Source of the DNA: an uncultured Pseudomonadota bacterium
GTDB taxonomy: Bacteria; Myxococcota_A; UBA796; GCA-2862545
Direction: 5' to 3'
Assembly: GCA_903861005.1 (NCBI GenBank)
Contig: CAIOSP010000093.1
Coordinates: forward strand, 1 to 36,320
Length of the DNA: 36,320 nucleotides
A model generated the notes under the pieces. That model was given only the letters and a program-made list of their open reading frames with translations. It was not told where the DNA came from and made no database searches. The position numbers were made by a program, and so were the translations under genes. The first letter of the stretch is position 1. Each line of letters opens with the position of its first letter. This document shows, piece after piece, positions 15,616 to 36,320 of this stretch.

Positions 15616-15616
15616 G

Positions 15617-16348: not shown

Positions 16349-16533
16349 CAGACCTCCAGAGTGGGACGCGCGGGCCAACCCAGGCCCAGACAGCGCCGGG
16401 GGCCGTGTACTCCGAGGCGAGACCTCGTGGATCCGATTGGACAACGTGCCACACGCGGCGAATTGTCGCGGCGAGGCCCCGTTCCCGCTCCGCCCTTGCG
16501 CGTTCTGCGCGCGCGCCGACTAAGCGCGCTCGC

Positions 16534-20586: not shown

Positions 20587-20623
20587 CGTGGATCCTGGAC
20601 ACCCCACTCCGACCGGAGCCCGT

Positions 20624-23600
20624 GTGAACGAGCGTGCCACGATCGACCGGGGCTGGTTCTATGTGATCGAGCCAGACCAGGGCGCCCACGCGCCGCCGGA
20701 CCGTCAGATCGTCGCCGACGACGGCGCGGTGCTGACGCGTCGTCCGCACGGCTTCCCCGGCCGCCTGGAGGCGGTGGACCTGTCCGGCGAGTCGCTGCCT
20801 GTCGCCACCCTGCTGCGTGCCACGTCCGCGGTCGGCCTGGCGTTCGAGGCCCGTGGCGCCGGCTTCTCCGACGCGGTGGTCGAGCTTGGGCCCGCAGGCA
20901 CCGCGCTCGCGGTCGACCAGACCCCTGACGGCCGCCTGCGCGTGCGCCTGGACGGCCCCGCGGTGTCGTGGGCGCCCGCGCCCCACGCGGTCTACGACGC
21001 GGTCGCCAAGGCGCTGGACGCCGTCTCTGCGGCACCGCCGCGGGCCCTCGCCGCGACCGGCGCCCTGCCCGACCATCCCGTGCCGCGCGCCCTGTTCTTC
21101 GAGTCGTTGATGAACACGGACATGCCGCACAACGACAAGGAGATCAGCCAAGGCGTCCTGCACATGATCAGCCCGCTCAAGGGGCTGGGGACACAGGTCG
21201 TCCTGGTGAACGCCAAGATGCCGATCGTGGGCGACGATCGCCCCGTGTTGGGCCTGGAGCGCCTAGTCGACGCGCTGGCGGCGGGCCCCATCCACTTGGT
21301 CGGGATCACCCTGCTCGAGGGCTACTGGGAGGGCGTGGTCAAGCTGATCGCCACGCTGCGGTCCCTGGGCTGTCGCGCGCACATCGCGGTGGGCGGCGTC
21401 ATGCCGTCGCTGGCGCCCGAGCACGTCGCCACGCACCTGCCGGACGTCAGCTTCATCTGCCGCGGCGCGGGCGAGGCCTTCCTCCCGCAGCTGTGCGAGA
21501 TCATCGGCACCCACACCATCGACGACGCGTTCACCGACGCCCAGCGCGCCGCCCTGCTACGCCTGGACGGGCTCATCACGCTCGACCGGGCCGCGGGTCG
21601 CCTGCTGGCGTCCAACGTCGCGCGGACGATGAAGGTCGAGGACCTGGACCGGGTCCACCTCGACCTGCGCTACCTCACGGCTCGCCACATCGAAGGCGGC
21701 ATCGAGCTGTCGACGTCGCGCGGCTGCATCCACAAGTGCAGCTTCTGCTCCATCCTGGGCCGCGAGTCGTACCAGGCGCGCAGCGCGGGCGGCGTGTTCG
21801 ACGTGCTGAAGGGCTACGAGGCGCGCTTCGCCGAGCTGTTCGGCGAGAACGTGCCGCCCAACGCCTACCGGGTGCACATCTCCGACGACGACTTCGCGTG
21901 CGAGCGCGACCGCGCGCGCGTCTTCTTCGAGGGCCTGCGCGACACCAAGTTCCGGCTCTCGTCGGTGCAAGTGTCGATCGCCGACCTGTGCCGCAAGGAG
22001 AACGGCAAGCTGCTGCCTGAGCCCGACCACGCGCTGCTCGACGCCATCCGCGCCGACTGCTTCGCCGACCACGGGCGGCCGATCCCCAAGAACGACTTCT
22101 TCGAGGACCACAAGTCCCGCAGCTGGTCGAGCTTCCTGCAGATCGGCGTCGAGACCTACAGCGACCGCGAGATCGCCAGGCTGGGCAAGGGCTACAAGCG
22201 CGTCCACGTCCGCGCGATCGTCGCCGAGCTGGCCCGCCGCGACCTGCACATGGACGGCTACTTCATCCTGGCCAACCGCGAGACCTCCGCGGCCGATCTG
22301 GTCGAGGTGTTCAGCGAGGTCGCGCGGCTCAAGCTCCGCTTCCCCGAGCACTTCCACATGCGCTTCCCGGTGGTGCAGCACCTGGTCAGCTACTTCACGG
22401 CCGCCAGCCACCGCCGCCACGTGCGCCAGGGCCGCCGCGACGCCATGGTCCTGCGCGGGTTCGCGTCCGTCCCGTCGCACCCCGAGTACGACTACCCGTT
22501 CGTCGACCACGACCAGCCCGACGACCCCTGGACGCTGCGCACCGTCGCCCGCCCGTTCGTCACCGATCAAGGCAGCTACACCGGCAACCTGACCGTGCTC
22601 AGCGCGATGTGGCGTGACTGGCTGCCCGACGCGTCCGACGCCGACCGCACCCGCATCGAGCGCCTGCTGCGCCGCCTGGACGACCGACCACGCCGGCTGG
22701 TGTTCGAGATGGTGCGCCAGGCGTGGTTCGCCGAGGACGCCGGCTGGCCCGACGCGCGCCTGGACCGCGAGCGCTGCCTGGAGACCGCCGAGCGCGTACT
22801 GGGCCCGCACGAGGCGTGGTTCCCCGTGCTGCGCCACGTGCTCCGCTCCCCCACCGAGCGCCGGCTGGTGCTGGTGACGGCCGCCAAGGACCGCCCGATG
22901 TCGGAGTCCGACGCGCGCGCCGCGGTCGACCTGCTGATGGCGTCCGACCAGGACGACGTGGCCCTGCACCTGATCGCCCCGCACGGCGAGGTCGACGTGG
23001 GCTTCCTGGGCGACGTGATCGACCTGGCGACCGAGCGCGCCGCCCACGTGGACGCGCCGCACCGCCTGCGCGTGATCGTCGACCGCGACGGCTGGGTCGC
23101 CACCGACGAGACCATCGCCACCCTCGCCGCCCGCAAGGTGGAGGTGCAGGTGGTCCGCCGCGCTGGCGCCGCCGACCTGGGCGACGGCTGGCGCGCCATG
23201 GAGGCCGCGGGGATCGACACCCGCGCGGTGATCGTGGTCGGACCGGATGACGTCGGCGCGCTTGTCGACGCGTGGCGTGCCGCCGCCCGGGTGGGCGTGG
23301 GCGCGTTCGCGATCGAGCTGACGACCGACCCCTGGGACGACGCGTCGTCGGCCAGGCTGGCCTCGGCGCTGTTCGACGCGGCCAAGGTGGTGGTGGGCGG
23401 CCCGCGCTGGCTGGGCGTGGGCGTGGAGCGCTCAGGCCGCCTGGACGACGTGCTGGTCGACGCGGACGGCACGATCGGCCGCGCGGACGGGCTGGTCGCG
23501 GGGTCAGGCCTGCGCGCCGAGCACCGGCTGGGTCGCCTGTCCGACCTGTCGAACGTCGACCGTCACGCGCTGCAAATCGGCGACCCGACGTCGCTGCCGG

Positions 23601-23722
23601 GCGCGCCCAAGCTCGACGCGATCACCAAGCGCCGCGCCAAGGCGGACAAGGTGCTCGCGAGCTTTGCGGCGTGGTGGCGCGGGCGGTCCGGCGAGGACAC
23701 GCAGACGGCGCCGCAGGCCTGA
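20624..23722 (+). CDS. Large radical SAM protein with B12-binding-like N-terminal domain and degenerate C-terminal barrel-like region
   Basis: A 1032-residue protein. Residues ~150-310 have the order of a cobalamin-binding domain (GITLLEGYWEGVVKLIATLR, AVGGVMPSLAPEHV, CRGAGEAFLPQL) but no DxHxxG cobalamin motif. The radical SAM motif is C368-IHK-C372-SF-C375, after STSRG; HISDDDFACERDRAR and FLQIGVETYSDREI follow, as in B12-type radical SAM enzymes. From ~750 to 950 alternating strands and helices (RRLVLVTAAKDRP, RLRVIVDRDGW, AVIVVGPDDVGALVDAW, GVGAFAIEL) look like a second barrel without cysteines. GTG at 20624 has GGAG five bases upstream. It converges on the hxs-type operon; the substrate is unknown. 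Confidence 0.8.
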   Translation: MNERATIDRGWFYVIEPDQGAHAPPDRQIVADDGAVLTRRPHGFPGRLEAVDLSGESLPVATLLRATSAVGLAFEARGAGFSDAVVELGPAGTALAVDQTPDGRLRVRLDGPAVSWAPAPHAVYDAVAKALDAVSAAPPRALAATGALPDHPVPRALFFESLMNTDMPHNDKEISQGVLHMISPLKGLGTQVVLVNAKMPIVGDDRPVLGLERLVDALAAGPIHLVGITLLEGYWEGVVKLIATLRSLGCRAHIAVGGVMPSLAPEHVATHLPDVSFICRGAGEAFLPQLCEIIGTHTIDDAFTDAQRAALLRLDGLITLDRAAGRLLASNVARTMKVEDLDRVHLDLRYLTARHIEGGIELSTSRGCIHKCSFCSILGRESYQARSAGGVFDVLKGYEARFAELFGENVPPNAYRVHISDDDFACERDRARVFFEGLRDTKFRLSSVQVSIADLCRKENGKLLPEPDHALLDAIRADCFADHGRPIPKNDFFEDHKSRSWSSFLQIGVETYSDREIARLGKGYKRVHVRAIVAELARRDLHMDGYFILANRETSAADLVEVFSEVARLKLRFPEHFHMRFPVVQHLVSYFTAASHRRHVRQGRRDAMVLRGFASVPSHPEYDYPFVDHDQPDDPWTLRTVARPFVTDQGSYTGNLTVLSAMWRDWLPDASDADRTRIERLLRRLDDRPRRLVFEMVRQAWFAEDAGWPDARLDRERCLETAERVLGPHEAWFPVLRHVLRSPTERRLVLVTAAKDRPMSESDARAAVDLLMASDQDDVALHLIAPHGEVDVGFLGDVIDLATERAAHVDAPHRLRVIVDRDGWVATDETIATLAARKVEVQVVRRAGAADLGDGWRAMEAAGIDTRAVIVVGPDDVGALVDAWRAAARVGVGAFAIELTTDPWDDASSARLASALFDAAKVVVGGPRWLGVGVERSGRLDDVLVDADGTIGRADGLVAGSGLRAEHRLGRLSDLSNVDRHALQIGDPTSLPGAPKLDAITKRRAKADKVLASFAAWWRGRSGEDTQTAPQA

Positions 23723-23772: not shown

Positions 23773-25218
23773 TCACGCCTTGTCGTCTTCCTTGGCGGCG
23801 AGCGCCTCTTCCAACACGGCGTCCTGGCTGCCCTGGTCGAGGTCCACGCTGTCGATCGTGATCAGCGAGGGGTCGTCGTCGTAGCCCAAGCGGCCGAGGC
23901 CCTCGAGGTAGTCGTGCAGCGGGCCGGACGCGGCCTGGAACTCACCGGCGACCGCCTGCTCGAGCAGGGTCTTGGTCGTGGGCAGATCGTAGGGCGGGTA
24001 CGGGTAGCGGTGCAGGTCGAGCTCGGGGTCGGCGCTGGCGGCGGCCTCGAGGGTGTCGAACGTGGCGCGCAGGGCGGCGGCCTGGGCGGCGATGTCTTCG
24101 GCGGACGCGCCAACCAGGGCGGACGGCAGGTCGGCCGGCGGCGCGGCGTCGGGGTGCGAGGCCAGGTAGCGGGCGGCGGCCAGGTGGAAGGCGTTGCCCT
24201 GGAGCTCGGCCAGGCGCGCGCTGACGGTGACGCGCTGCAGCAGCGCCAGGCGGTCGGTCGGCAGCTCCAGCCCCAGCAGGCCCACGATCCAGGTCCAGAC
24301 CTCGGCCAGGTGGCGGCCTTCGTCCTTCTCGGTGGGGCGCAGGCGCGTGAAGATGGGGATCAACTCGTCGCGCACGAGCGCGGTCGCGGCGGCCTGGTCG
24401 GCGGGGGCGACGACGGTGGCCAGCTCGCGGGCGAACACGGCGGCGTCGGGGACGGCGCCCTCGGCGAAGATGGCGGGCAGGTGCGACGTGTCCTGGGTGC
24501 GGAGCGCGCCCCACATGCAGACGCGGCCGCCGCCGTCAGCGTGGAACTCGGCGAACCACGGGTGCACGCCCAGACCGGAGGCCGAGTAGACTTGGTAGGC
24601 GGTCTTGAAGCGGGTGCCGTGGCCCAGCTCGACGAACGCGGCGGCGATGGCCGGAGAGCTGACGCCCTCGGACGACCAGGACAGGCCGGTGACGGCGCCG
24701 TCACGCCAGTGCACGCCCCACAGGCCGCTGCGGACGCGCGGCGCGAAGGCCTCGACGCGGGCAGATAGCGCTGGCGAGAGCAGCGAGAGCGGCGAGGCTT
24801 CGTGGCGCGTGACCACGCCCTCGACGCCGTCGATCCACTCCCACGCGAGGACGGGGTGGCCGCCCTGGCCGGCGACGTTGTCGCGCTCGACGGCGAACAC
24901 ACGCAGGCGCTTGCCGTCGGTGCAGAACACGTGGTCGAGCTTGGGGCGCTTGTCGACGAAGGCCTTCACGGCCGGCCACTGCTTGAACGCGACGCCGCGC
25001 ACGCGCTCGACCTCACCGCGGTCGGCGACCCACACGTCGGGGGCCTCGTCCGTGCCCAGACCGAACGACACGCCCAGCTTGCTGGAGTCGATCATCTTCG
25101 CGATCACGGCCTGATCCACCAGCGCCGCGATCGGCGCGGCGGGGGCGGCTCCGAGCGCCGCGGCAATCAGCGAGTCCACCCACTCAGGCGAGACCAGATC
25201 GACAGGTGCCTTGTCCAT
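23773..25218 (-). CDS. Unrecognised 481-residue protein at the end of the hxs-type operon
   Basis: A soluble protein with no signal peptide, no membrane segment and only two Cys, so it is not an Fe-S enzyme. The first ~270 residues look beta-rich with many Trp and Gly (VLAWEWIDGVEGVV, GLWGVHWRDGAVTGLSW, HPWFAEFHADGGGRVCMWGAL). The C-terminal part is helical, with an aromatic HRYPYPPYDLP segment, and ends in a charged tail (EEALAAKEDDKA). The ATG at 25218 has GGAGG seven bases before it. It lies 47 bases after a radical SAM gene on the same strand. It might be a peptide-binding, peptidase-like or second tailoring protein for the repeat peptide; the sequence does not decide. Confidence 0.75.
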   Translation of the reverse strand: MDKAPVDLVSPEWVDSLIAAALGAAPAAPIAALVDQAVIAKMIDSSKLGVSFGLGTDEAPDVWVADRGEVERVRGVAFKQWPAVKAFVDKRPKLDHVFCTDGKRLRVFAVERDNVAGQGGHPVLAWEWIDGVEGVVTRHEASPLSLLSPALSARVEAFAPRVRSGLWGVHWRDGAVTGLSWSSEGVSSPAIAAAFVELGHGTRFKTAYQVYSASGLGVHPWFAEFHADGGGRVCMWGALRTQDTSHLPAIFAEGAVPDAAVFARELATVVAPADQAAATALVRDELIPIFTRLRPTEKDEGRHLAEVWTWIVGLLGLELPTDRLALLQRVTVSARLAELQGNAFHLAAARYLASHPDAAPPADLPSALVGASAEDIAAQAAALRATFDTLEAAASADPELDLHRYPYPPYDLPTTKTLLEQAVAGEFQAASGPLHDYLEGLGRLGYDDDPSLITIDSVDLDQGSQDAVLEEALAAKEDDKA

Positions 25219-25265
25219 CAGCAATCCTCCAGGCGGGGCGTCCCAGCCAAATCCACGTTCCGGGG

Positions 25266-26390
25266 CTAATCGCCCGCTTGGGCGGCGGCCATCGGCTCGC
25301 CGTAGGGGCGAAGCTCGCCCGTGTCATACAAGTCTGCGTACCGATCGTACACGCCCATGCACACCGTGTTGCGGGCGCAGCGCTCGCAGGCGTCCACGCG
25401 CTTGCGCTTGCGGTCGGGGGTCCAGTTGTAGAGGCCCTCGAAAACGACCTTTCCGGGCTTGCTGCTCCACTCGACCGTCACGCGCGGATCCCAGTGGAGG
25501 TCGTTGGAGAGCACGTCGTACGGGCCCAGCAGGCACATCGGCATGCCGAAGAAGCGCACGATCGCCTTGTGCGCGCGGGCGCCGGCCTTGGGGACGACCT
25601 CGGCCAACTTGGCCAGCGGCACGCCCAGCTCGCGGTACTTGTCGAAGCCGCCGCCCTCCGGCGTGGTGTTCGACACGACGATCAGCTTGGCGCCCAGGCT
25701 CTCGGCGAACGCGATGGTGTCGGGCAGCGCGTCGATGTTGTGCTTGGTGACCACCGTGTTGACGTACAGGTTGAAGTTCGGGTTCACGGCCAGCGTGTTG
25801 CGGATGGCGGTGGTGGTCTGCTCGAAGCTGCCCTGGCGACGCGTCAGGCGGTCGTTGATCTCGGCGTTCGGGCCGTGGAGCGAGAACAAGGCCTCGTCGA
25901 GGTACGGCACCGCGCGCGCCGCGTAGTCCGGCCGCGCGAGCATGGTGCCGATGGTGCCCACGCTGGTGCGCATGCCGAGCTTGCGCGCGAGCATGCAGAC
26001 CTCGATGAACTGCGGGTGGAGCGTGGGCTCGCCGCCCGTGAAGTGGACGTTTTGCACGCCGCGGGCGGCGTGGGTGCGCAGGATGGTCGCCACCCGGCCC
26101 CAGGTCACCTGGAACTCGTGGTAGGCCTCCATGCGGTGCTCTTCCGAGCAGAACACGCATCGCTCGGCGCAGTGGTAGGTCAGGTGCAGCTCGAGCCGGC
26201 GCATGACCGCGCCGTTCGGACCGATCCACGGCGTCTCGGTGGCGTACTCGGGTGCCACGGGCATGGGCGCTGAGCCGCGCGGGATGTGGCCGGCGGTGCG
26301 CTTGAGCTCGAACTCCTCGACGACGCGCGCGTCTTCGGGGACGATGATCGCGCGTTCGCGCACGGGGTCACTCACAGACCGTCCTGTCAC
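25266..26390 (-). CDS. Radical SAM protein with C-terminal Fe-S site (hxs operon, second accessory)
   Basis: A 374-residue radical SAM enzyme. The cluster motif is C74-AER-C78-VF-C81, after LTYH; GGEP is at 119-122. The barrel continues with SLHGPNAEINDRLTRRQGSFEQT, a common substrate-pocket pattern in this superfamily. The C-terminus has C335-ER-C338-ARNTV-C344, a short SPASM-like auxiliary cluster site. The first ~60 residues form a polar extension. GTG at 26390 overlaps the previous stop (GTGA), with GGAGG four bases upstream; a GTG five codons later is possible. It likely acts on the repeat peptide or a partner, judged from coupling. Confidence 0.85.
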   Translation of the reverse strand: MTGRSVSDPVRERAIIVPEDARVVEEFELKRTAGHIPRGSAPMPVAPEYATETPWIGPNGAVMRRLELHLTYHCAERCVFCSEEHRMEAYHEFQVTWGRVATILRTHAARGVQNVHFTGGEPTLHPQFIEVCMLARKLGMRTSVGTIGTMLARPDYAARAVPYLDEALFSLHGPNAEINDRLTRRQGSFEQTTTAIRNTLAVNPNFNLYVNTVVTKHNIDALPDTIAFAESLGAKLIVVSNTTPEGGGFDKYRELGVPLAKLAEVVPKAGARAHKAIVRFFGMPMCLLGPYDVLSNDLHWDPRVTVEWSSKPGKVVFEGLYNWTPDRKRKRVDACERCARNTVCMGVYDRYADLYDTGELRPYGEPMAAAQAGD

Positions 26391-27373
26391 GCCGCCTCCT
26401 CCAGCGTCCTCCGCCTCTGACGGTACCGGCGGTAGTGCGGGTAGAGGCTCTGGCACAGCCGCGTCAGCTCGGCGTCGACGGCCAGCGTCGAGCTCCACAC
26501 ACGCGGGGGAAGGGACGACTCCAGCAGGCCGTTGATCGACGCGGCCTTCTCGGCCAGCAGCTCGTTGGACGGGGGGTTGTCGAGGTCGCCGCAGCGCGTC
26601 TCGCCCAGCAGCTCGTCGAGCGATCCAGACAGGCCGACGTTGCTCGGGTGGATGCTGCGGTCGGAGTCGACGATGAAGCCTGAGTTGAAGAACGGCGTGG
26701 GCTGCAGCGTGAACAGGTTGCGCAGGTAGAGCTTCTCGCCCTTCTCCCAGGCGTCGATGATCTCGTCGCGGATGCCGTCAAAGCCCACGCGCAGGTTGGC
26801 GAGGGCCTCGTCCGTCCACGGGATGTAATATCCGGGGAGCAGGTTGAACCGCCAGAACCCGAGGCTGCGCAGGTGGCGGAAGTTGTCCCCGGCCCGGCCC
26901 GACGTCTTGGGCGGGACGGTCTGGGTGATCACCACGCGCGGCACGGTGGACAGCTGCGGGATCAGCGACACGACGTGGTCGTACGCATCGCCCACGCCGT
27001 CGACCGCGCGCCGGTACTTCCGGTTGTCCTCGGGTACGCCGTCGATTGAGATCGTCAGCACGCCCTTGGGGTAGGTGCGCAGGTAGTCGAGCCAGTCCGT
27101 GTCGAGCCCGAGCCCGTTGGTCGACAGGTAGACGCGACGAATGGACGGCAGCGTGGCCGCGTAGTCCATGGCCGCGCGCACCACCTCAGGCACCATCAGG
27201 GGCTCACCGCCGAACAGCTTGACGTCACCGCCGCCATGCCGCTCGACGAACAGATCCAGCCCGCGGCGCACGTCGTCCGGCGACAAGCCGGGCCACCCAT
27301 CCTTCACCGTCGGACAGTACGCGCAGCGAAGGTTGCATGCGCGTGTGACGGTGAGGATGAGCGTGGTCACCAC
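26387..27373 (-). CDS. Radical SAM protein directly coupled to the Ser-His-Gly repeat gene
   Basis: A 328-residue radical SAM enzyme. C13-NLR-C17-AY-C20 binds the catalytic 4Fe-4S cluster and GGEP is at 55-58. Further barrel motifs are YLSTNGLGLD and ISIDGVPEDNRKYRRAVDG. No compact C-terminal Cys set is seen, only scattered Cys (RCGDL, RLCQSLYP), so it may lack an auxiliary SPASM cluster. Its GTG start lies inside the last codons of the repeat gene (7-base overlap); a second GTG is the next codon. That coupling makes it a strong candidate for modifying the repeat peptide. It does not look like canonical HxsC, which has CxxxCxxCSxPP. Confidence 0.87.
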   Translation of the reverse strand: MVTTLILTVTRACNLRCAYCPTVKDGWPGLSPDDVRRGLDLFVERHGGGDVKLFGGEPLMVPEVVRAAMDYAATLPSIRRVYLSTNGLGLDTDWLDYLRTYPKGVLTISIDGVPEDNRKYRRAVDGVGDAYDHVVSLIPQLSTVPRVVITQTVPPKTSGRAGDNFRHLRSLGFWRFNLLPGYYIPWTDEALANLRVGFDGIRDEIIDAWEKGEKLYLRNLFTLQPTPFFNSGFIVDSDRSIHPSNVGLSGSLDELLGETRCGDLDNPPSNELLAEKAASINGLLESSLPPRVWSSTLAVDAELTRLCQSLYPHYRRYRQRRRTLEEAA

Positions 27374-27999
27374 TGCCCGTGAGAGCCGTGGCTACCGTGC
27401 GACCCGTGCGACCCATGCGAGCCGTGCGACCCGTGAGAGCCGTGCGAACCATGCGAGCCGTGCGACCCGTGAGAGCCGTGCGACCCGTGCGAACCATGGG
27501 AGCCGTGCGAGCCGTGAGAGCCGTGAGAGCCGTGGCTGCCGTGCGACCCGTGAGAGCCGTGCGAGCCGTGGCTGCCGTGCGAACCGTGCGAGCCGTGCGA
27601 CGCGTGGGAGCCGTGCGAGCCGTGCGACCCGTGCGAGCCGTGGCTGCCGTGCGAACCATGCGAGCCATGCGAGCCATGCGACCCGTGCGAACCATGCGAG
27701 CCGTGCGACCCGTGAGAGCCGTGCGACGCGTGGGAGCCGTGCGAGCCGTGCGACCCGTGCGACGCGTGGGAGCCGTGCGAGCCATGGCTACCGTGCGACC
27801 CGTGCGACCCGTGCGAGCAGTGGCTGGCCAGGAACACGCCACCGTTGTCGGGATCCGACACGAGCATGTCGGCCTTCTGGAGGAGACCGTCCACGTCCAC
27901 TTCGGTGACCTGACGGGTCTCCTCGGACTGGAGGAACTGGACGGGCTTCTTGGTGAGGCCCGGCAGCGGCGGCAAGCCCGAGAGATCCTTCTTGGCCAT
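27367..27999 (-). CDS. hxsA: His-Xaa-Ser-type repeat protein: precursor with 50 Ser-His-Xaa triplets
   Basis: A 210-residue protein. Residues 1-58 ([19 protein letters not shown]... to GVFLA) form a non-repetitive leader with no signal peptide or membrane helix. Residues 59-208 are 50 consecutive Ser-His-Xaa triplets: Xaa is Cys once (first), Ala three times and Gly 46 times. The chain ends Gln-Trp. In known Hxs systems HxsA is the repeat protein presumed to be modified by HxsB and HxsC. AGGAG lies five bases before the ATG, and the gene begins 8 bases after the HxsB stop. The DNA uses mixed synonymous codons. A metal-binding or structural role for an unmodified His array remains an alternative. 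Confidence 0.85.
27376..27825 (-). repeat. In-frame 9-base tandem array coding Ser-His-Xaa x 50
   Basis: The array covers 450 bases as 50 nine-base units. Variation between units is synonymous (Ser as TCG, TCC, TCT or AGC; His as CAC or CAT; Gly third base variable) except for one Cys and three Ala codons. The frame never slips. Confidence 0.95.
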
Positions 28000-28007
28000 C
28001 GTGACTC

Positions 28008-29567
28008 CTACTTGGCGTCTGCGTGCGACGGAGCCACAGGCTCCTCGTCGCGGGGTCGGTTGATCGTCCAGCGGCGAAACACCGCCATTATCTTACCATC
28101 GGTGTCGGCGGCAATCCGCTCGAAAAGCATCCGAGAGATGCCCATGTGCTCCTTGCACTTCGGCGTATTCGGCCTCTGACCGAACAAATCGCCGCACTCC
28201 ATGTAATTGTTGTCCGGACGCACGCCGCAGTAGGGCATGTTCCAGCACGTGTGGCAGGCGGGCAAACCGTCGAGCAGCGACGACATCACCAGGGCCTTGA
28301 CCGTGGGGTGGCCGATCATGTCGCGGTAGCTGGTCTTGCCCAGCTCGCCGATCTGCAGGAAGTCGTTGCCCATGCCCGCGAGCATGCGGCCCTCGTCGGA
28401 CGTGAAGATGCGCCCGTCGAAGTTGTAGGCGACCTGGCCGGTGCCCGCGCCCAGCGGGTTGCGGATGTCGACGTAGTTGGGGTCATCCGGCGTCAGCATC
28501 TTCTTGAGGAAGATGGCGGCGGTGCCCTCTTGGATCTGGACGCCCTTGGCGTTGAGCTCCAGGACGTAGTCCAGGACCTTGCCGTAGAAGTCGAGGTACT
28601 CCTCCATGGAGTAGCCGATCACGCGCCAGGTCTTGGTGGCGAAGCCGTACGGGTTGAGCGGCCGGATCTTGATGTTCCGGATGCCCAAGCTGACGTACAG
28701 ATCCACCAGCTCCTTGTACTGGCTGAGCGTCTTGCGGGTCGTCGTCATCAGGGCGTCGACGTGCCAGAGGCCGCCATCCTTGCCCGTCTCGATGTAGCGA
28801 CGGTTGAAGTACGAGATCCAGTGCAGCACCTGCTGGTAGGCGCTGGCTTCCTGGACGTTCACGCCCGTGGGGAAGTTCTGCTCGCTCTTCACCCAGGTGC
28901 GGTTCCAGTTGTGGAGCTCCTCGGGGCCGTCGAGCGACGTGCACACCAGGACGCCGTTGGCGATCAGCCACTCGGCGTTCTCCACCGTCATCCACGACAT
29001 GTTGGTGACCACGGAGTGATCGACCACCTTGCCGTACTTCTTGTTCAGCTCGCGGCTGTACTCGACCGAGAGCTTGATGGCGTCCATGTTCACCGTCGGC
29101 TCGCCGCCGGTGTACTCGAAGCAGATGTAGGGCGACGTGGACTGGAAGGCCTGCTCGACGCCCTTCTTCACGATCTCGGGGCTCATGTCCGTGCCCACCG
29201 CGTCCATGTCGGTGCGCGACGCGTGGCAGTACTTGCAGCCCTGGTTGCACCGCAGCGTGGTGATCATCACGTGCAGGTGCGGGCCGTAGTCCACGTAGTA
29301 GCGCTTGCGACGCACCTTCTGCGCGAGGTCCATCAGGTTCATGCCGGACCTGACGAACCCCTTGGCGTTGAGGGCGTCGAATTCGGGATGCCCGGCCTCC
29401 AGCCCACCCGAGAGGAACAGCTCGAAGTCTGCGGGGGTGAGCAGGTGCCACTCCGCCGCGTCGTTCGTGAGCAGGACCTTGTCCGCGATGAACCCGTAGC
29501 GGAAGAAGCCGAGCTTCTCGGCGGCGAGCTTAGGGGTGGTGACCTGAAGCGTCCGGGTCTCGATCAC
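28008..29567 (-). CDS. hxsB: HxsB-like radical SAM/SPASM maturase
   Basis: A 519-residue radical SAM enzyme matching the HxsB plan of the His-Xaa-Ser system. An N-terminal domain with FFRYGFIADKVLLTNDAAEW is followed by TTLRC107-NQG-C111-KY-C114-HASR, then DMSPEIVKKG, YTGGEPTVN (GGEP 154-157), VTNMSW, TSLDGPEELHNWNRT, ALMTTT, IRPLNPYGFA, VAYNFDGRIFTSDEGRML and a C-terminal Cys cluster (C438, C441, C447, C458, C471). Known role (inferred in the literature from genome context): modification of HxsA. The GTG start overlaps the stop of the HxsD-like gene (GTGA), with GGAGG upstream. The repeat gene follows 8 bases later. Confidence 0.9.
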   Translation of the reverse strand: MIETRTLQVTTPKLAAEKLGFFRYGFIADKVLLTNDAAEWHLLTPADFELFLSGGLEAGHPEFDALNAKGFVRSGMNLMDLAQKVRRKRYYVDYGPHLHVMITTLRCNQGCKYCHASRTDMDAVGTDMSPEIVKKGVEQAFQSTSPYICFEYTGGEPTVNMDAIKLSVEYSRELNKKYGKVVDHSVVTNMSWMTVENAEWLIANGVLVCTSLDGPEELHNWNRTWVKSEQNFPTGVNVQEASAYQQVLHWISYFNRRYIETGKDGGLWHVDALMTTTRKTLSQYKELVDLYVSLGIRNIKIRPLNPYGFATKTWRVIGYSMEEYLDFYGKVLDYVLELNAKGVQIQEGTAAIFLKKMLTPDDPNYVDIRNPLGAGTGQVAYNFDGRIFTSDEGRMLAGMGNDFLQIGELGKTSYRDMIGHPTVKALVMSSLLDGLPACHTCWNMPYCGVRPDNNYMECGDLFGQRPNTPKCKEHMGISRMLFERIAADTDGKIMAVFRRWTINRPRDEEPVAPSHADAK

Positions 29568-29812
29568 GCAGGACCTCCGAGGGTGGCGCGCGTGCGCACC
29601 ACGGTCTCGAAGAGCGCGTGGTTGGCGAAGCCGTCCGGGAGGACGTCGCCGTAGCCAGGGTCGAAGCCCTTGAGCACCGCGATCGTCTCCACCTCGGTGT
29701 CGGTCACCTCGATGGACTCCGCGTAGGCGCCGTACGCCTCCGCGGCCGCGCGAACGGCCTCAGGCAGGTACAGCGACCGATGAAAGGTCAACCGGGCGGA
29801 GGTCTCAGCCAT
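29564..29812 (-). CDS. Second, short HxsD-like protein
   Basis: An 82-residue protein with the HxsD-type order: LTFHRSLYLPEAVRAAAEAYG (an F-x-x-x-x-Y-x-x-x-A-V strand and helix), a short strand (ETIAVLKGF), then a C-terminal helix with FANHALFETV. It matches the upstream HxsD gene in pattern but is about 65 residues shorter and lacks the ELLNQ segment, with NHALF in its place. Known HxsD proteins accompany HxsB/HxsC and may present the precursor; they are not enzymes by any visible motif. Its ATG lies inside the HxsD gene (8-base overlap) and its stop overlaps the HxsB start, so the three are one translational unit. Confidence 0.78.
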   Translation of the reverse strand: MAETSARLTFHRSLYLPEAVRAAAEAYGAYAESIEVTDTEVETIAVLKGFDPGYGDVLPDGFANHALFETVVRTRATLGGPA

Positions 29813-30245
29813 TGCTTGGGTCCTCCCACGGAACGGAGATCTCCAGCGGATCCTCTTCCAGCTCTTCGGCGTCGAGCTCGGCGAGCAGGGCGTCGATGCT
29901 GGTCTGGTTGGAGTCCGCGAAGAAGGCCTTGGCCATGTAGTACTCGCGGATCTGCGCGGTGGACTCACCGACGCGGACACGGACCACCTGGTTGAGGAGC
30001 TCGTTCGCGTACTCGCCCGCGAGCTTCTCCAGGCCGGCCTTGTCGGACTCTTCCTTAGGCTTGAGGCGGACTTCGATGCGGTCGTCGGCCGGGCGCGTCA
30101 GGAACACGAAGGCGCGATCCACGAAGAGGTACGCGGCGCCGTACACGGCATCGCGAGGGTAGATCGCTTCGTCCAGGGTGAACGAGACGCGGCGACCGTC
30201 GGTGGAGTAGATGAGCTCGTCGAGCTCCTGGGTGATGTCGGTCAA
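29805..30245 (-). CDS. hxsD: HxsD-family protein
   Basis: A 146-residue protein. Residues ~13-95 carry the HxsD signature: VSFTLDEAIYPRDAVYGAAY, FVDRAFVFL, IEVRLKPK, and LAGEYANELLNQVVRVRVGE followed by STAQIREYYMAKAF. The E-L-L-N-x-x-x-R element is the family hallmark. An acidic tail (about 110-146, DAEELEEDPLEISVPWEDP) extends beyond the family core. The start codon is TTG at 30245, chosen because GGAGG precedes it by 7 bases and the family core starts shortly after; the ORF extends upstream without an RBS. It is the first gene of the hxs-type operon. Confidence 0.85.
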   Translation of the reverse strand: MTDITQELDELIYSTDGRRVSFTLDEAIYPRDAVYGAAYLFVDRAFVFLTRPADDRIEVRLKPKEESDKAGLEKLAGEYANELLNQVVRVRVGESTAQIREYYMAKAFFADSNQTSIDALLAELDAEELEEDPLEISVPWEDPSNG

Positions 30246-30518: not shown

Positions 30519-31049
30519 CTAGGCCAGGGTCTCGGGACCGAAGGCGCCAACGCGATCATCGTGCGTCATCATGCGCGCGATGGGCTTGAGGTCGCCATCC
30601 GGCAGCGTCTCGTTGCGGCGGATGCGCTCGGCCAGGCCGAGGACCACGCGACCGAGCTTCTCGTCCGTCTGGAACGAGCCCGATCCGCCGTCCATGAGGA
30701 CCAGATCCACCAGACGCGTGCTGGCGAGGCCGCGGGGCTTGCCGCCGTGGGCGCAGATGTGGACCTTGGCCGTGCGGCCCGTGGCGTGCGCCAGGGTGAG
30801 GACGGCGGCGCCGCGCTCGACCGAGGACAGGCCGGCCACGTACCAGCCGAACTTCAGGGGCGTGCCCATGCCGATCGGATGAACCAGCCACCAGGGCGCG
30901 GGGCCCGTGGGCAGGGTCATGCCACCGGCTTCTGCAGGGCGGATTCCACCCTGAACCGCCTCAAAGGCCGCGCTCGCGACACCGGGGACAGCGGCCGCAG
31001 CAGCGGTACCCGCGAGAAGCTTCTTGAGAACGGTACGACGAGAGTCCAT
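30519..31049 (-). CDS. Tat-exported small protein, unknown function
   Basis: A 176-residue protein. The N-terminus MDSRRTVLKKLLAGTAAAAA with cleavage near GVASAA is a twin-arginine signal, so the protein is exported folded, often with a cofactor. The mature ~148 residues have no recognised family. They include WWLVHPIGMGTPLKFGWYVAG, AKVHICAHGGKPRGLAST (one Cys, several His), LVLMDGGSGSFQT and LAERIRRNETLP. It sits between three upstream radical SAM genes and the hxs-type operon on the same strand, but a promoter box and a terminator bracket it as a separate unit. A role as partner or target of the radical SAM enzymes is inference from position. Confidence 0.75.
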   Translation of the reverse strand: MDSRRTVLKKLLAGTAAAAAVPGVASAAFEAVQGGIRPAEAGGMTLPTGPAPWWLVHPIGMGTPLKFGWYVAGLSSVERGAAVLTLAHATGRTAKVHICAHGGKPRGLASTRLVDLVLMDGGSGSFQTDEKLGRVVLGLAERIRRNETLPDGDLKPIARMMTHDDRVGAFGPETLA

Positions 31050-31439: not shown

Positions 31440-32477
31440 TCAGAAGCCCCGCGCGAGCACAGACTGGCGCTGCTCTTCGCTGGGCTGCTCGGTGCGGGAG
31501 CGCAGGCCACGACGGTCTTCCAGGCGCGCGACCAGGGCCGGGCTGGGCTCGGCCCGGAGCACCTGACGGATGACGGGGAGCGGATCCTCGAAGATCGGGG
31601 ACAGCTCGCGCTCGTCGTAGGTCTTGGCCATGGAGTACATGCCGGCGCAGATGGTGTCCCACCGGCAGGAGTCGCAGGCGCTGCCCTTGCCGTGCAGGAA
31701 CTCGAGCTGGTGGACGAAGCCCTTCTGATCCAGGAAGCGGATGCAGCGCTCCTCCTCCTTGATGATCTTGCGGGCCTCGGTCGACGCCCAGGCGAACCGG
31801 CGCATGTAGCAGAGCGGCACGCGCTCGGCGCGGAAGGTGCGGCCCGTCGCGTGGAGGTACTCCATCGCGAGCTCCAGGCCGATCTGCCACTCGTGGTGGC
31901 GCGGGATGCAGTCCGGGTTCTTCTCGGCGCGGTTGCCGTCCGGGTCCATGTTGTTCCACACGAAGTGGCGGATGGTCGGGAACCGATCCGTGATCCACAT
32001 CACGTTCTCGTGCAGGTGGTCCGCGTTGTACGCGCAGATCACGCAGTTGATGTCCGCCGTGATGCCCATCTCTGGCACCAGCGACAGGGCCGTCACCAGC
32101 GTCTCCCAGGCGTTGGGGTACGCGGTGATGAAGTTGTGGACCTCAGGCCGGTAGCTGTGGAGCGACGCGTGGATGTGGGTCAGGCCCGCGTCCACGCACT
32201 CCCGGAAGAACTTGGGGTCGCACAGCAGCTGGCCGTTGGTGATCATCCGGCTGTGCAGGCCCTTCTCGGTGGCGTAGCGCAGCGCGGGCTTGAGCAGCGG
32301 CGACATGGTCGGCTCGCCGCCGGTCAGGATGACGCCGTCGTAGCCCATGTCGGCCAGATCATCGATCATGGCCCGCATCTCCTCTTCCGTCAGATCCACG
32401 CCCGTGGGCGGGTTCGAGCAGAAGCGGCAGTGCTGCAAGCAGTTGCGCGTGAGCTGGAGATAGCCAAGGTTTGCCAT
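31440..32477 (-). CDS. Radical SAM protein with C-x-P-P motif and short C-terminal Cys site
   Basis: A 345-residue radical SAM enzyme. LQLTRN is followed by C13-LQH-C17-RF-C20-SNPP; the S-N-P-P continuation recalls the CSxPP of HxsC-type enzymes. GGEPT is at 53-57, TNGQLL follows, then SLHSYRPEVHNFITAYPNAW, matching the SL..HD..V..GAF pattern of peptide-modifying radical SAM proteins. C268-DS-C271-RWDTI-C277-AGMY is a C-terminal auxiliary Fe-S site. A long Arg/Glu-rich tail ends the protein. Its ATG comes 3 bases after the stop of the preceding radical SAM gene. It may play the HxsC-like role, but overall HxsC similarity is limited and the substrate is inferred. Confidence 0.85.
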   Translation of the reverse strand: MANLGYLQLTRNCLQHCRFCSNPPTGVDLTEEEMRAMIDDLADMGYDGVILTGGEPTMSPLLKPALRYATEKGLHSRMITNGQLLCDPKFFRECVDAGLTHIHASLHSYRPEVHNFITAYPNAWETLVTALSLVPEMGITADINCVICAYNADHLHENVMWITDRFPTIRHFVWNNMDPDGNRAEKNPDCIPRHHEWQIGLELAMEYLHATGRTFRAERVPLCYMRRFAWASTEARKIIKEEERCIRFLDQKGFVHQLEFLHGKGSACDSCRWDTICAGMYSMAKTYDERELSPIFEDPLPVIRQVLRAEPSPALVARLEDRRGLRSRTEQPSEEQRQSVLARGF

Positions 32478-32480
32478 GAA

Positions 32481-34406
32481 CTACTTGGCCTCCCCACCGT
32501 TGGGATTCGCGGCGAACAGGGCCTTGGCCTCAGCCAGGCGCTCGTCGCGACGCTTCTGACGCTGCTCTTCGACGATCGCCAGCGGGTCCTGCGGGGCGTG
32601 CGTCGGCTGGGCGAAGCCCGGCAGGCTGGTCGCCGCAGGCTGGAGGGGCCGACCCTGCGCGATGCGCGAGATGGGGTCAGGGTAGCGCGCGGTGAGCTGC
32701 GCCGTGGCGTCCTCGAGCCAGGGCCCGCTCGTCATCGGCTCCAGCAGCTTGAGGCCCTGGTCGCGGATCATGTTGATGTGCATGCCGTCGCAGCGGCCGA
32801 TGAGCGCGCAGTCGTCGCAGCGGGACGACTTGGAGCGGTAGCCGTTCTTGATGTGGAAGCGGGCCAGCTGCGAGATGCTCAGGCGGCCGGTCCCCTGCTC
32901 GAACGTGTCGGACGGGAGCACGGCGCGGTCGGGGATCATCTCCATGAACGGCGTGTTGCACGGCGGCAGGCCAGACACGCGGACGCGCAGGCCCAGGGCC
33001 ACGAAGAACTGCTTGGGCTCGCGGACGTCGTTCTCCGACGATTCCTTCATCTGCTCGAACGTGGGCTGATGCACGCGGACGCGGGCCAGGTTGGCGGCCA
33101 GCGCGTCCTTGTGCTCGAGCATCCACGGGGCGGTCGACGTGTTGAGCCAGATCTCCAGCTCGCCGACCGAGTCGGGGATGGGCTGGCTGAACCACAGGTC
33201 GAGCTGCTCGGCGGTGCGCGCGACGAACACCGACGGGACGCCGAGGTCGGCGGGGATCGGCGACGCGTCCTTGGGGAGCGCGTACAGACCCGCGCCCGCA
33301 GGCAACGCGGCCACCACGCGGCGCAGGTCGTCGGTCTTGTCGACCTCGACCCCGACCTTGTTGATGCCGAACGGCAGCGGGACGGGCAGGCTCTTCAGCG
33401 CGCGCTTGTCCGCGCCCAGGTCCCAGACCTCCCAGGCGTCGGTGTTCTGGGCCTCGATGGTGCGGTCCATCGTGGTGCAGAAGGGCTCGATGAAGCAGTG
33501 CACGCAGCGCTCGGGCTGGCGGCAGTTCAAGGGCTCGCCGGTGTCCAGGTAGTTCCGGACGTGGAAGCGGCGGCCGTTGATCTCGTCCATCATCTTGTGG
33601 GGGTCCTGGATCAGGTCCTCCATGCCCTCAAGATGCGCGACAGGGAACCGGTTGGTCCACACGACGAACCGCGGGTGGCGGTTGAGGCGGAACACCTTCT
33701 GCAGGATGGGGAGGTACTCGCGCGGATTGTAGAACAGCTCGTCGCGGTTCTCGAACCCGGCGGCCTGCGGGATGATGTGCAGCAGGTCGAACTCGGTCAC
33801 GCCCAGCTTGATCGCCAGCTGAACGATCTGATCGAGCACGCCGACGTTCTGCTTGTTGATCACCACGTCCACCGAGCAGATGACGCGCGGGTCGCGCGCG
33901 GCGCGGTGGATGGCCTTGGTGATGCGCTGGAAGCTGTCCTTGTGCGCGGTCAGCCGGTTGTGGAGCTCGGGCGTGTGGCCGTGCAGGCTGAACGTCATCT
34001 CCTGGAGGCCTGCGGTCACGCACTCCTCGTAGAACTCGCGTTCCGCGTAGCGCCAGCCGTTGGTGACGGTCTGGATGCGGCCGTAGCCGACCTCGCGGGC
34101 GTAGCGGATGAACTCCGGGAACAGCGGGTGCAGCGACGCCTCACCGCCCGACAGGATGATCTTCCACGCGTTCTGCTCGGTGCGACCGCGCAGGATCTCC
34201 GCCTTCACGTCCTCTTCGGACAAGTAGACGTTGCGCGGCGTGTCGCTGTCCAAGCAGAAGATGCAGTGGCTGTTGCAGGCGGTGACGGTGCGGACCCAAT
34301 GCTTGGGTACGTTCGACACCTCCTCGCGCCAGAGCATGTACTCCTCGGAGTTCTGCCCCTCTGGCTTGATGAAGGACAGACCCGTCGGCTCGGCGTGTTC
34401 ACCCAT
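32481..34406 (-). CDS. Large two-part radical SAM protein with two Cys sites
   Basis: A 641-residue protein. C44-NSH-C48-IF-C51-LDSD is the radical SAM motif and GGEA (87-90) stands in for GGEP. TFSLHGHTPELHNRLTAHKDSF and INKQNVGVLDQIVQLA complete a barrel. A first C-terminal Cys set (CRQPERCVHCFIEPFC, about 294-309) resembles SPASM ligands. After it comes a second alpha/beta region (~340-520) ending GLRVRVSGLPPC and then CDDCALIGRCDG near 529-540, repeating the barrel-plus-Cys layout without a CxxxCxxC. AGGAG lies five bases before the ATG at 34406; a longer frame lacks an RBS. Flanked by radical SAM genes with gaps of 23 and 3 bases. Confidence 0.82.
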   Translation of the reverse strand: MGEHAEPTGLSFIKPEGQNSEEYMLWREEVSNVPKHWVRTVTACNSHCIFCLDSDTPRNVYLSEEDVKAEILRGRTEQNAWKIILSGGEASLHPLFPEFIRYAREVGYGRIQTVTNGWRYAEREFYEECVTAGLQEMTFSLHGHTPELHNRLTAHKDSFQRITKAIHRAARDPRVICSVDVVINKQNVGVLDQIVQLAIKLGVTEFDLLHIIPQAAGFENRDELFYNPREYLPILQKVFRLNRHPRFVVWTNRFPVAHLEGMEDLIQDPHKMMDEINGRRFHVRNYLDTGEPLNCRQPERCVHCFIEPFCTTMDRTIEAQNTDAWEVWDLGADKRALKSLPVPLPFGINKVGVEVDKTDDLRRVVAALPAGAGLYALPKDASPIPADLGVPSVFVARTAEQLDLWFSQPIPDSVGELEIWLNTSTAPWMLEHKDALAANLARVRVHQPTFEQMKESSENDVREPKQFFVALGLRVRVSGLPPCNTPFMEMIPDRAVLPSDTFEQGTGRLSISQLARFHIKNGYRSKSSRCDDCALIGRCDGMHINMIRDQGLKLLEPMTSGPWLEDATAQLTARYPDPISRIAQGRPLQPAATSLPGFAQPTHAPQDPLAIVEEQRQKRRDERLAEAKALFAANPNGGEAK

Positions 34407-34429
34407 CGGGGCTCCTGTCTCTCGGGCGC

Positions 34430-36320
34430 CTACCCGGTCGTCGTCCAACCGACGGCGTATCCGGGAAGCACGCGCGAATCAGCGCGCTGGGAAGAGTCCA
34501 GCCCTGCAGTATAGCAGCCAAACCGGTCAAGACCGCTCGGCTGTGACCAGGATTCCGGGATCTCACCCCACGCGACCTCGGCAATGGGCGCCGGAACGAC
34601 ATGATCCGGCCTGTCGAAGATCGTCGCGGGCAGCACGGCGGCGATCGCATCGCGTGCGGGGCCCTGGGGCAACGACTCGGCGGCGCGCAGGAGCGCGGTC
34701 AGGTTGCCCCCCTTCGACGACAGCCGGAAGAACGGCGCGCCGGGCAGATCGCCGCGGTCCCAGGCCTCGGCGAACGGCAGCAGCTGGTCGGCCGACGTGA
34801 GCACGGCGTACACGCCCAGCTCGAGCGACGGCACCAGCGTGCCCGCGCGGTCGATCGCCTTGAGCGTGGCGTCGAACGCGCCCGCGCGACCCACCAGCGC
34901 GTCGTGCTCCGCCGCGTCCGCGGACAGCAGCGCGCCGTCCAGGCGGGTGATGCCACGCAGGCGGCGGATCTCCATGTCGCCCAGGCGCTCGAACGCGCTC
35001 AGGTCACCGGCCACCTCGATGCGCTTGAACTCCAGGCGGGTGGCCTCGCGCAGCATCTCGGCCGCCTCGGGGTGCCACAGGCTGCCGGCCGACGCGATGC
35101 GCAGCGTGCTCGCGCCCACCTGCGCGGCCTTCACCAAGCGCTGGCGGATCTCGCGGGTGGGCTCGGGCACGTCCGGACCGGGGCGATCGCCCAGCACGGG
35201 GTCGGCGATCTTGGACGGCGCCAGGAACACAAAGCGGAGCGTGTCCGGCGGGTCGGACTTGGCGACGAGCGCCAGCGGGTCGCCCGCCAGCGACGGCAGC
35301 TGGGCCGACATGCGCGCGAACATGGCGCGACTCTGCGGGAAGCGACCACCGCGCGGCGGCGGGAACACGTCGCCGCCCTCCAGCGGCGTGGGCGGCAGCT
35401 TGCCCGGGTTCACCAGCTTCACGCCCTCGCTGTCGATCTCCATGCGACCAAAGCGGCGGGTGTAGTCGGTGGGCGCGCCGCAGCAGGCGGGGCCGCCCGG
35501 GCACGCGCCGCAGCCACGCTCAGACGGCGGCGGCTCGAAGCGCGGGCGCAGGAAGGGCCACGGACCGGTCGACGGCACGGCCCACACCACGGCGTCCGTC
35601 GGCAGGTAGGCCATCTTGGCGCCGGGCGACACACACTGCGGGAAGCCCTCGATCCACACGTTCAGGCCGCTGCGCATGCCCAGCTGCGCTGCCTTCTCCA
35701 GGTCCTTGCCCACCAGACCAAAGCGCGCGGCGACCGGGATGTCGGCGTCCGCCGTGGGGCCGCGCGCCGTCACGCGGCGGAGCACCACGGTCTTGGCGCC
35801 CAGCTTGGTGAAGAAGTCGAGCGCCTCGTCCAGGTAGGGGCCGGTGGGGCGGGTGACGGTGCACTCGACCTCGACCTCCAGGCCGGCCTCGACGCAGGCG
35901 CGCAGGCCCTTCACGGCGCGCTTGAACGCGCCGGTCTGCCCGAACAGCCAGTCATGGGCGTCGCCGCGGGCGCTCGCCAGGCGGACGCGCACGCGCTTGA
36001 GGCCCAGCTGCTTGAGCATCGCCGGGACGTTGGGCGCACCGAGCGCCAGGCCGTCGGTGATCATGCCCAGGCCGGGTGCGCCGGCGTCAGCCAGCGCGCG
36101 GACCAGCTGGGGGAAGTCGTCGCGCAGGGTGGGCTCGCCGCCCGCGATCATCCAGCTCCCTGCGTCCGGAAACGCGCGGGCGGCCGCCACCACGTCGGCG
36201 ATCGAGGGATCGGCCGGGGCGTCGTCGACGGCGTGGTCGAGCTTGCCCGTGAGTCGCTGGCGCGCGCCCGCGACGACCCGGACCTCGGGTTGTGCGGCGG
36301 TGGGCGGAGTGCGTCGGCCG
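34430..36320 (-). CDS. Radical SAM-type protein, 5' end beyond window, with degenerate second barrel
   Basis: The frame is open to the window end, giving 629 visible residues and no start. Near the visible N-terminus MIAGGEPTLRDDFPQLVRAL is a clear radical SAM GGEP strand, followed by MITDGLALG and SARGDAHDWLFGQTGAFKRA, typical barrel motifs. The CxxxCxxC that should precede GGEP by ~45 residues is not in the visible part; it is either outside the window or missing. A Cys set, CGACPGGPACCG, suggests an auxiliary cluster. The C-terminal ~250 residues repeat the barrel order (RIASAGSLWHPEAAEMLREA, SADAAEHDALVGRAGAFDAT, YAVLTSADQLLPFAEAW) without Fe-S cysteines. Confidence 0.8.
   Translation of the reverse strand, partial: GRRTPPTAAQPEVRVVAGARQRLTGKLDHAVDDAPADPSIADVVAAARAFPDAGSWMIAGGEPTLRDDFPQLVRALADAGAPGLGMITDGLALGAPNVPAMLKQLGLKRVRVRLASARGDAHDWLFGQTGAFKRAVKGLRACVEAGLEVEVECTVTRPTGPYLDEALDFFTKLGAKTVVLRRVTARGPTADADIPVAARFGLVGKDLEKAAQLGMRSGLNVWIEGFPQCVSPGAKMAYLPTDAVVWAVPSTGPWPFLRPRFEPPPSERGCGACPGGPACCGAPTDYTRRFGRMEIDSEGVKLVNPGKLPPTPLEGGDVFPPPRGGRFPQSRAMFARMSAQLPSLAGDPLALVAKSDPPDTLRFVFLAPSKIADPVLGDRPGPDVPEPTREIRQRLVKAAQVGASTLRIASAGSLWHPEAAEMLREATRLEFKRIEVAGDLSAFERLGDMEIRRLRGITRLDGALLSADAAEHDALVGRAGAFDATLKAIDRAGTLVPSLELGVYAVLTSADQLLPFAEAWDRGDLPGAPFFRLSSKGGNLTALLRAAESLPQGPARDAIAAVLPATIFDRPDHVVPAPIAEVAWGEIPESWSQPSGLDRFGCYTAGLDSSQRADSRVLPGYAVGWTTTG

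What the first reader, a model, noticed from the sequence alone, without database searches (positions are those of the whole stretch)
23773..30245. Variant His-Xaa-Ser peptide-modification operon around a pure Ser-His-Gly array
Seen: seven tightly packed minus-strand genes (HxsD, HxsD-like, HxsB-like radical SAM, repeat protein, two radical SAM enzymes, unknown protein), with four of the six junctions overlapping. The repeat protein has 50 unbroken Ser-His-Xaa triplets, nearly all Gly. Known: Hxs systems pair HxsA repeats with HxsB, HxsC and HxsD. Here no typical HxsC is in the operon and two other radical SAM enzymes replace it, so the chemistry may differ. Inference: HxsB and partners modify Ser, His or Gly positions many times per chain.
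Basis: partly seen in the sequence, partly recalled or inferred. Interest (0 to 1): 0.9.

Follow-up and report, generated by a model that had tools for sequence, protein, structure and literature searches.

The report
Histidine-serine repeat peptide modification operon
A bacterial gene cluster makes a protein whose tail is Ser-His-Gly repeated up to 50 times, alongside several radical-chemistry enzymes that probably modify it; it is a distinct, widely conserved branch of a known family (His-Xaa-Ser systems) whose chemistry is, as far as I could find, unsolved.

Summary
In detail: seven co-directional minus-strand genes, four of six junctions overlapping, and a repeat protein with 50 unbroken Ser-His-Xaa triplets (46 Gly, 3 Ala, 1 Cys). 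Curated models name HxsA4, HxsB and HxsD, plus a near-cut-off HxsD-like protein and two radical SAM enzymes of no curated family. So this is a His-Xaa-Ser system, and HxsA4 is already a named family. New here: (1) the window belongs to a 'type I' clade of HxsB (100/100 support) with a conserved set: Tat-signal protein, HxsD, HxsD-like, HxsB, HxsA4, P0005, P0006. (2) The array's C-terminal cap follows the HxsB clade perfectly: GQW in 32/32 type I arrays, GSW in 13/13 type II. 'No HxsC, two replacements' is only partly right: no protein reaches the HxsC cut-offs, but upstream P0009 is the nearest HxsC relative. Ser and His are almost invariant over 1233 triplets, which points to them as the modified residues. 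The chemistry is untested. New variant of a known kind.

The parts
27367..27999 (-). HxsA4 precursor, 210 aa (whole gene)
   Evidence: NF038313 193.6 bits, cut-off 55
27826..27999 (-). Leader, 58 aa, with a LPxLxxxxxxFLxxxE-like motif seen across the phylum; no signal peptide
   Evidence: leaders compared; 13 synonymous and 1 non-synonymous codon differences to the orphan paralogue
27376..27825 (-). Array of 50 Ser-His-Xaa triplets; first is SHC (N-cap), then SHG/SHA
27370..27375 (-). C-terminal Gln-Trp cap, typical of type I
   Evidence: GQW 32/32 in type I arrays, GSW 13/13 in type II arrays
28008..29567 (-). HxsB radical SAM maturase (P0003)
   Evidence: TIGR03978 461 bits, cut-off 370; CxxxCxxC at 107/111/114 and four C-terminal Cys (438, 441, 447, 471) invariant in 67 homologues
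29805..30245 (-). HxsD (P0001; start codon not certain, TTG)
   Evidence: TIGR03976 59.2 bits, cut-off 50
29564..29812 (-). HxsD-like small protein (P0002)
   Evidence: NF038315 39.2 bits, just under the cut-off of 41; found next to HxsB in most loci
26387..27370 (-). Type I radical SAM enzyme P0005; rSAM core, no SPASM cysteines
   Evidence: PapB 83 bits against cut-off 340; all 15 homologues match only PapB at this threshold; alignment; only in type I genomes
25266..26390 (-). Type I radical SAM enzyme P0006, HxsC-like, with four further conserved Cys
   Evidence: HxsC4 95 bits against 500 and HxsC 65 against 268; alignment; own clade
30519..31049 (-).
   Evidence: in all 30 type I loci; twin Arg invariant in 21 homologues; duplicated with HxsA4 in L054 and L055; in 25/50 HxsA4 carriers and 0/30 others
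31440..32477 (-). Radical SAM P0009, nearest relative of HxsC, phylum-wide partner
   Evidence: TIGR03977 76 bits, below cut-off 268; co-occurs 49/50 against 2/30; groups with HxsC
32481..34448 (-). Radical SAM P0010, phylum-wide partner
   Evidence: co-occurs 49/50 against 2/30; own clade
34430..36193 (-). Incomplete radical SAM gene at the contig edge; membership uncertain
   Evidence: Pfam Radical_SAM 47 bits from model position 42 on; the window is the whole contig
23773..25218 (-). P0007, unknown protein, lineage-specific rider, probably not core
   Evidence: no NCBIfam or significant Pfam match; only window genus plus a 66-bit match in L074

Best explanation
A type I variant of the HxsA4 His-Xaa-Ser system. 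The HxsA4 chain is made with a leader that HxsB, probably with HxsD and the HxsD-like protein, recognises. HxsB then works along the repeat and modifies the Ser-His-Gly units, with P0009 and P0010 as further radical SAM partners needed by HxsA4 systems generally, and P0005 and P0006 adding a step specific to type I, perhaps at the GQW end. The single chemistry I think most likely is a bond or oxidation at the Ser beta carbon involving the neighbouring His ring. The product is probably destined for the cell envelope, with the Tat-signal protein P0008 as exported partner or carrier. Shown: gene content, conservation, co-occurrence and cap/clade covariation. Inferred: that HxsA4 is the substrate, that Ser and His are modified, leader binding, export. 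Guess: the bond type.
For: Curated HxsA4, HxsB and HxsD matches. HxsA4 carriers have HxsB in 50/50 genomes against 2/30 non-carriers, although in many sampled loci the two genes are unlinked; one of the two exceptions, G087, does hold a weak HxsA4 next to its HxsB. P0009 and P0010 show 49/50 against 2/30. Array cap and HxsB clade agree in 45/45 arrays, and one genome, G186, holds both types, each with its own cap (L121, L122). In 1233 inner triplets Ser is kept in 1232, His in 1230, Gly in 1218, so the constraint is strongest on the two residues with reactive side chains. Classical HxsA proteins carry signal peptides; type I precursors do not, while the operon carries a Tat protein, and 8 loci place a PKD/Ig-domain protein with a lipoprotein-like start just upstream.
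Against: No mass, structure or activity data. No peptidase or dedicated exporter was recognised. Phylogenetic inertia could explain part of the cap/clade match. The order-wide carriers are related, so the counts are not independent events. The Tat-carrier idea rests on synteny and two tandem duplications only. P0008 and HxsD structure predictions were unusable.
Confidence: 0.6

Rival explanations
1. The array is used unmodified, as a His-rich metal-binding or buffering polymer, and the radical SAM enzymes act on something else encoded nearby.
For: A repeat with His every third residue is a plausible metal ligand; many carriers keep HxsA4 far from HxsB among housekeeping genes.
Against: HxsB, P0009 and P0010 track HxsA4 in almost every genome even when unlinked, and Ser, which a metal buffer would not need, is kept in 1232 of 1233 triplets.
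Confidence: 0.12
2. A collagen-like structural protein: Gly every third residue lets chains pack as a triple helix or polyglycine-II bundle.
For: Pfam Collagen matches at 77 bits; exact period of three; Gly mostly invariant.
Against: No proline anywhere in the array; Gly is the most tolerant of the three positions (15 exceptions against 1 for Ser and 3 for His), the reverse of collagen; strict company of maturases. A three-fold helix could still be the shape of a modified chain.
Confidence: 0.08
3. P0005 and P0006 have truly replaced HxsC and carry out a different chemistry in type I systems; P0009 and P0010 serve some other shared step.
For: P0005 and P0006 follow type I only, and sit directly after the array; HxsC4 proper sits after the array in type II loci L116 and L170.
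Against: P0009 is the nearest HxsC relative and is present in both types; type I is a co-inherited set, so replacement and addition look alike.
Confidence: 0.2

Closest known systems
HxsA4 system of NCBIfam (NF038313 HxsA4 with NF038332 HxsC4)
   Same: Same precursor family, well over the cut-off; HxsB present; array of SHG triplets with HCS start and aromatic end.
   Different: The window has no HxsC4 (best 95 bits against 500). HxsC4 sits beside the array in type II loci such as L116 and L170; the window's clade has P0005, P0006 and a Tat protein instead, and a GQW rather than GSW end.
Classical HxsA/HxsA2-HxsB-HxsC-HxsD systems (plasmid loci L174-L177)
   Same: HxsB and HxsD over the cut-offs; Ser-His-Xaa triplets at the end of a small protein.
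   Different: Classical arrays are short, Xaa is mostly Ser, Arg, Ala or Tyr, the precursor has an N-terminal signal peptide, and HxsC follows HxsB.
PapB-type ranthipeptide maturases
   Same: P0005 aligns with the radical SAM core (83 bits).
   Different: Far below the cut-off of 340, no SPASM cysteines, and the array holds only one Cys, so no repeated thioether is possible.
TvgB (poly-cyclopropylglycine RiPP; PMC9062424)
   Same: A radical SAM enzyme that modifies a repeat motif many times along one precursor.
   Different: Different motif (TVGG, Val modified); cited as an analogy for repeated modification, no homology tested.

Membership tests
His-Xaa-Ser system | HxsA-type repeat protein | tested here: met
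   NF038313 193.6 bits against 55
His-Xaa-Ser system | HxsB maturase | tested here: met
   TIGR03978 461 bits against 370
His-Xaa-Ser system | HxsD | tested here: met
   TIGR03976 59.2 bits against 50
His-Xaa-Ser system | HxsC | tested here: not met
   Best candidates: P0009 76, P0006 65, P0010 64 bits against a cut-off of 268; P0009 is nearest HxsC on a tree (SH-aLRT 92, long branches)
His-Xaa-Ser system | Post-translational modification of the repeat | not testable with these tools
   needs mass spectrometry
HxsA4/HxsC4 subtype (type II here) | HxsC4 beside the array and GSW end | tested here: not met
   P0006 95 and P0010 92 bits against 500; window array ends GQW
Type I clade (defined here) | HxsB clade, Tat protein, P0005, P0006, GQW end | tested here: met
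PapB ranthipeptide maturase (P0005) | PapB score and SPASM cysteines | tested here: not met
   83 bits against 340; no conserved Cys set beyond CxxxCxxC
Collagen | Gly-Xaa-Yaa repeat with strict Gly and proline-rich triplets | tested here: not met
   Pfam Collagen score 77 bits is met, but there is no Pro and Gly is the least strict position
RiPP | Leader plus modified core, leader removed | tested here: inconclusive
   a leader with a shared motif is present; modification and cleavage untested

The most novel reading that the evidence does not exclude
Each Ser-His-Gly unit is converted to the same new residue or cross-link, so that one chain carries up to 50 identical modifications and becomes an ordered array of His rings, made by four or more radical SAM enzymes and exported with a Tat partner: a new kind of modified biopolymer spread over about a third of the sampled genomes of a bacterial phylum.
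Probability: 0.3. Interest if true: 0.88.

Novelty: new variant of a known kind. Interest (0 to 1): 0.6.

Why it matters
No paper in the library searched reports the chemistry of any His-Xaa-Ser system, although the genes are common. The type I set makes that question directly testable: the array has only two reactive residue types, Ser and His, plus one Cys and one Trp, so a mass shift per repeat would define the modification. The co-occurrence result names P0009 and P0010 as partners that a test with HxsB alone would leave out, and the cap/clade match gives a specific prediction about which enzymes read the C-terminus.

Tried and rejected
P0008 has no significant PDB match (best E 0.4) and no Pfam domain beyond weak Tat-signal hits. 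A heuristic hydrophobicity scan for signal peptides in HxsA4 leaders was mixed: only a few families show one, two with a twin-Arg motif (L147, L152), so I do not claim that HxsA4 in general is exported by Tat. A Cys-Cys link between P0008 and the array was considered and dropped, since the P0008 Cys is lost in L048, L050, L051 and L053. The plus-strand B12-type radical SAM gene at 20588-23722 did not recur beside HxsA4 in relatives. Genome contigs gave only one true relative for HxsB. The Haft and Basu paper on Hxs systems is not held, so its definitions were taken from NCBIfam models.

Full report
WHAT IS THERE. The window is a whole contig (C93) of a 5.8 Mb draft genome, unnamed by the tools; a near-identical locus comes from a metagenome-assembled genome labelled only 'Proteobacteria bacterium'. 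NCBIfam gives HxsD (59.2 bits, cut-off 50), an HxsD-like protein just under its cut-off (39.2 of 41), HxsB (461, 370) and HxsA4 (193.6, 55). P0005 reaches only 83 bits for PapB (cut-off 340), P0006 95 for HxsC4 (500) and 65 for HxsC (268), and P0007 matches nothing.

THE ARRAY. The precursor is a 58-aa leader, 50 SHX triplets and QW. I collected 83 precursors with distinct leaders from the order and phylum. Of 81 complete ORFs, 78 end in SW or QW and three are cut off by contig ends. Lengths run from 8 to 50 triplets, most between 12 and 22. The first triplet is xHC in nearly all. In 1233 inner triplets Ser is kept in 1232, His in 1230 and Gly in 1218 (12 Ala, 2 Ser, 1 Arg). The set was gathered by requiring at least four consecutive SHG, which favours pure arrays. 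Ser codons from both families and the synonymous excess against the paralogue and sister species show selection on the protein, not on the DNA repeat.

CONSERVED OPERON. In the window's order 31 of 63 genomes have HxsA4 over the cut-off. I annotated the loci with profiles made from the window's proteins. Of the 30 type I loci (the orphan HxsB L069 left out), all carry P0008 and HxsD; nearly all with sequence downstream carry P0005 and P0006. The clear exception is L057, with 9.6 kb downstream and neither. In L058 they lie several kb further on. Many loci have one more HxsC4-like enzyme after P0006 ('E', 130-150 bits to HxsC4), which the window lacks. P0008 has an invariant twin Arg, and in L054 and L055 it is duplicated together with HxsA4. 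Eight loci have a long protein with PKD/Ig domains and a lipoprotein-like start just before P0008.

TWO TYPES. A tree of 67 HxsB proteins splits with 100/100 support into type I (35 rows, including four loci from families outside the order: L117, L121, L128, L130) and type II (32 rows, none with P0005). The only type I row without P0008 or P0005 beside it is a second, orphan HxsB of the window's own genome (L069), on a long branch. Every complete array linked to a type I HxsB ends GQW (32/32) and every one linked to type II ends GSW (13/13; Fisher 1.4e-11, treating loci as independent, which they are not). G186 holds one locus of each type (L121 GQW, L122 GSW), so the cap follows the enzyme set rather than the host. 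HxsC4 over its cut-off sits beside the array in type II loci L116 and L170.

CO-OCCURRENCE. In a phylum sample 113 of 379 genomes have HxsA4 over the cut-off. Of 80 genomes chosen, all 50 HxsA4 carriers have HxsB over its cut-off, against 2 of 30 others. One of the two, G087, has a weak HxsA4 beside its HxsB; the other, G065, is 79% complete. P0009 homologues occur in 49/50 against the same 2/30 and P0010 homologues in 49/50 against the same 2/30; the single missing P0010 is in G005, whose contig ends inside the neighbouring gene. P0005 occurs only where type I does, plus G218, whose locus I did not inspect. P0008 relatives occur in 25/50 against 0/30. HxsA4 and HxsB are often unlinked, so these figures are not just synteny. 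They are not independent of descent either.

WHICH ONE IS HXSC? On a quick tree of radical SAM cores P0009, P0010, P0006, 'E', HxsC4 and HxsC each form one group, and P0009 groups with HxsC (SH-aLRT 92). The branches are long, seven rows lack the GGE motif I used for trimming, and the tree is unrooted, so this is a lead.

MECHANISM. Inference, step by step: the leader motif shared across the phylum is the likely recognition element; HxsB has the CxxxCxxC motif and four invariant C-terminal cysteines, compatible with one auxiliary cluster; the positions under strongest constraint are Ser and His, so I place the modification there. Repeated radical SAM modification of a repeat precursor has a precedent in TvgB (PMC9062424), which shows feasibility only. 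A bond or oxidation at the Ser beta carbon near the His ring is my first guess, at about one in three; the sequence data cannot tell it from other Ser or His changes. Export is suggested by the signal peptides of classical HxsA and by P0008, but is not shown.

NOVELTY. HxsA4 is a named family, so the array itself is known. I found no description of the type I/II split, the cap rule, the P0009/P0010 companions or the Tat partner in the papers searched, a library that lacks most subscription journals.

Noticed in passing
13864-16444 (-): A fused MNIO (DUF692, MbnB/TglH/ChrH) and DUF2063 protein sits next to a Cys-rich lipoprotein-like protein with a CADCH motif (15617-16444), which looks like a second, separate RiPP-type modification locus in the window.
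   Followed up: partly
20588-23722 (+): A 1044-aa protein with a weak B12-binding match and a CxxxCxxC-like motif, convergent with the Hxs operon; not recurrent beside HxsA4 in relatives.
   Followed up: partly
L066 1-586 and L067 4580-4831 (own genome, contigs C40 and C168): A second HxsA4 with an almost identical leader lies among housekeeping genes without maturases; two contigs each end inside the repeat and probably belong to one gene, which also suggests that assemblers break here.
   Followed up: partly
L069 8074-9678 (own genome, contig C73): A second, divergent HxsB over the cut-off with none of the other Hxs genes beside it.
   Followed up: no
10924-12651 (+): ZIP-like transporter with a long His-rich loop (HAHAHHDD and similar).
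   Followed up: no
L068 3-377 (own genome, contig C66): A short contig edge reads as an Asp-His-Gly repeat (14 triplets) in one frame; not checked whether it is a real gene or a shifted frame of another repeat.
   Followed up: no
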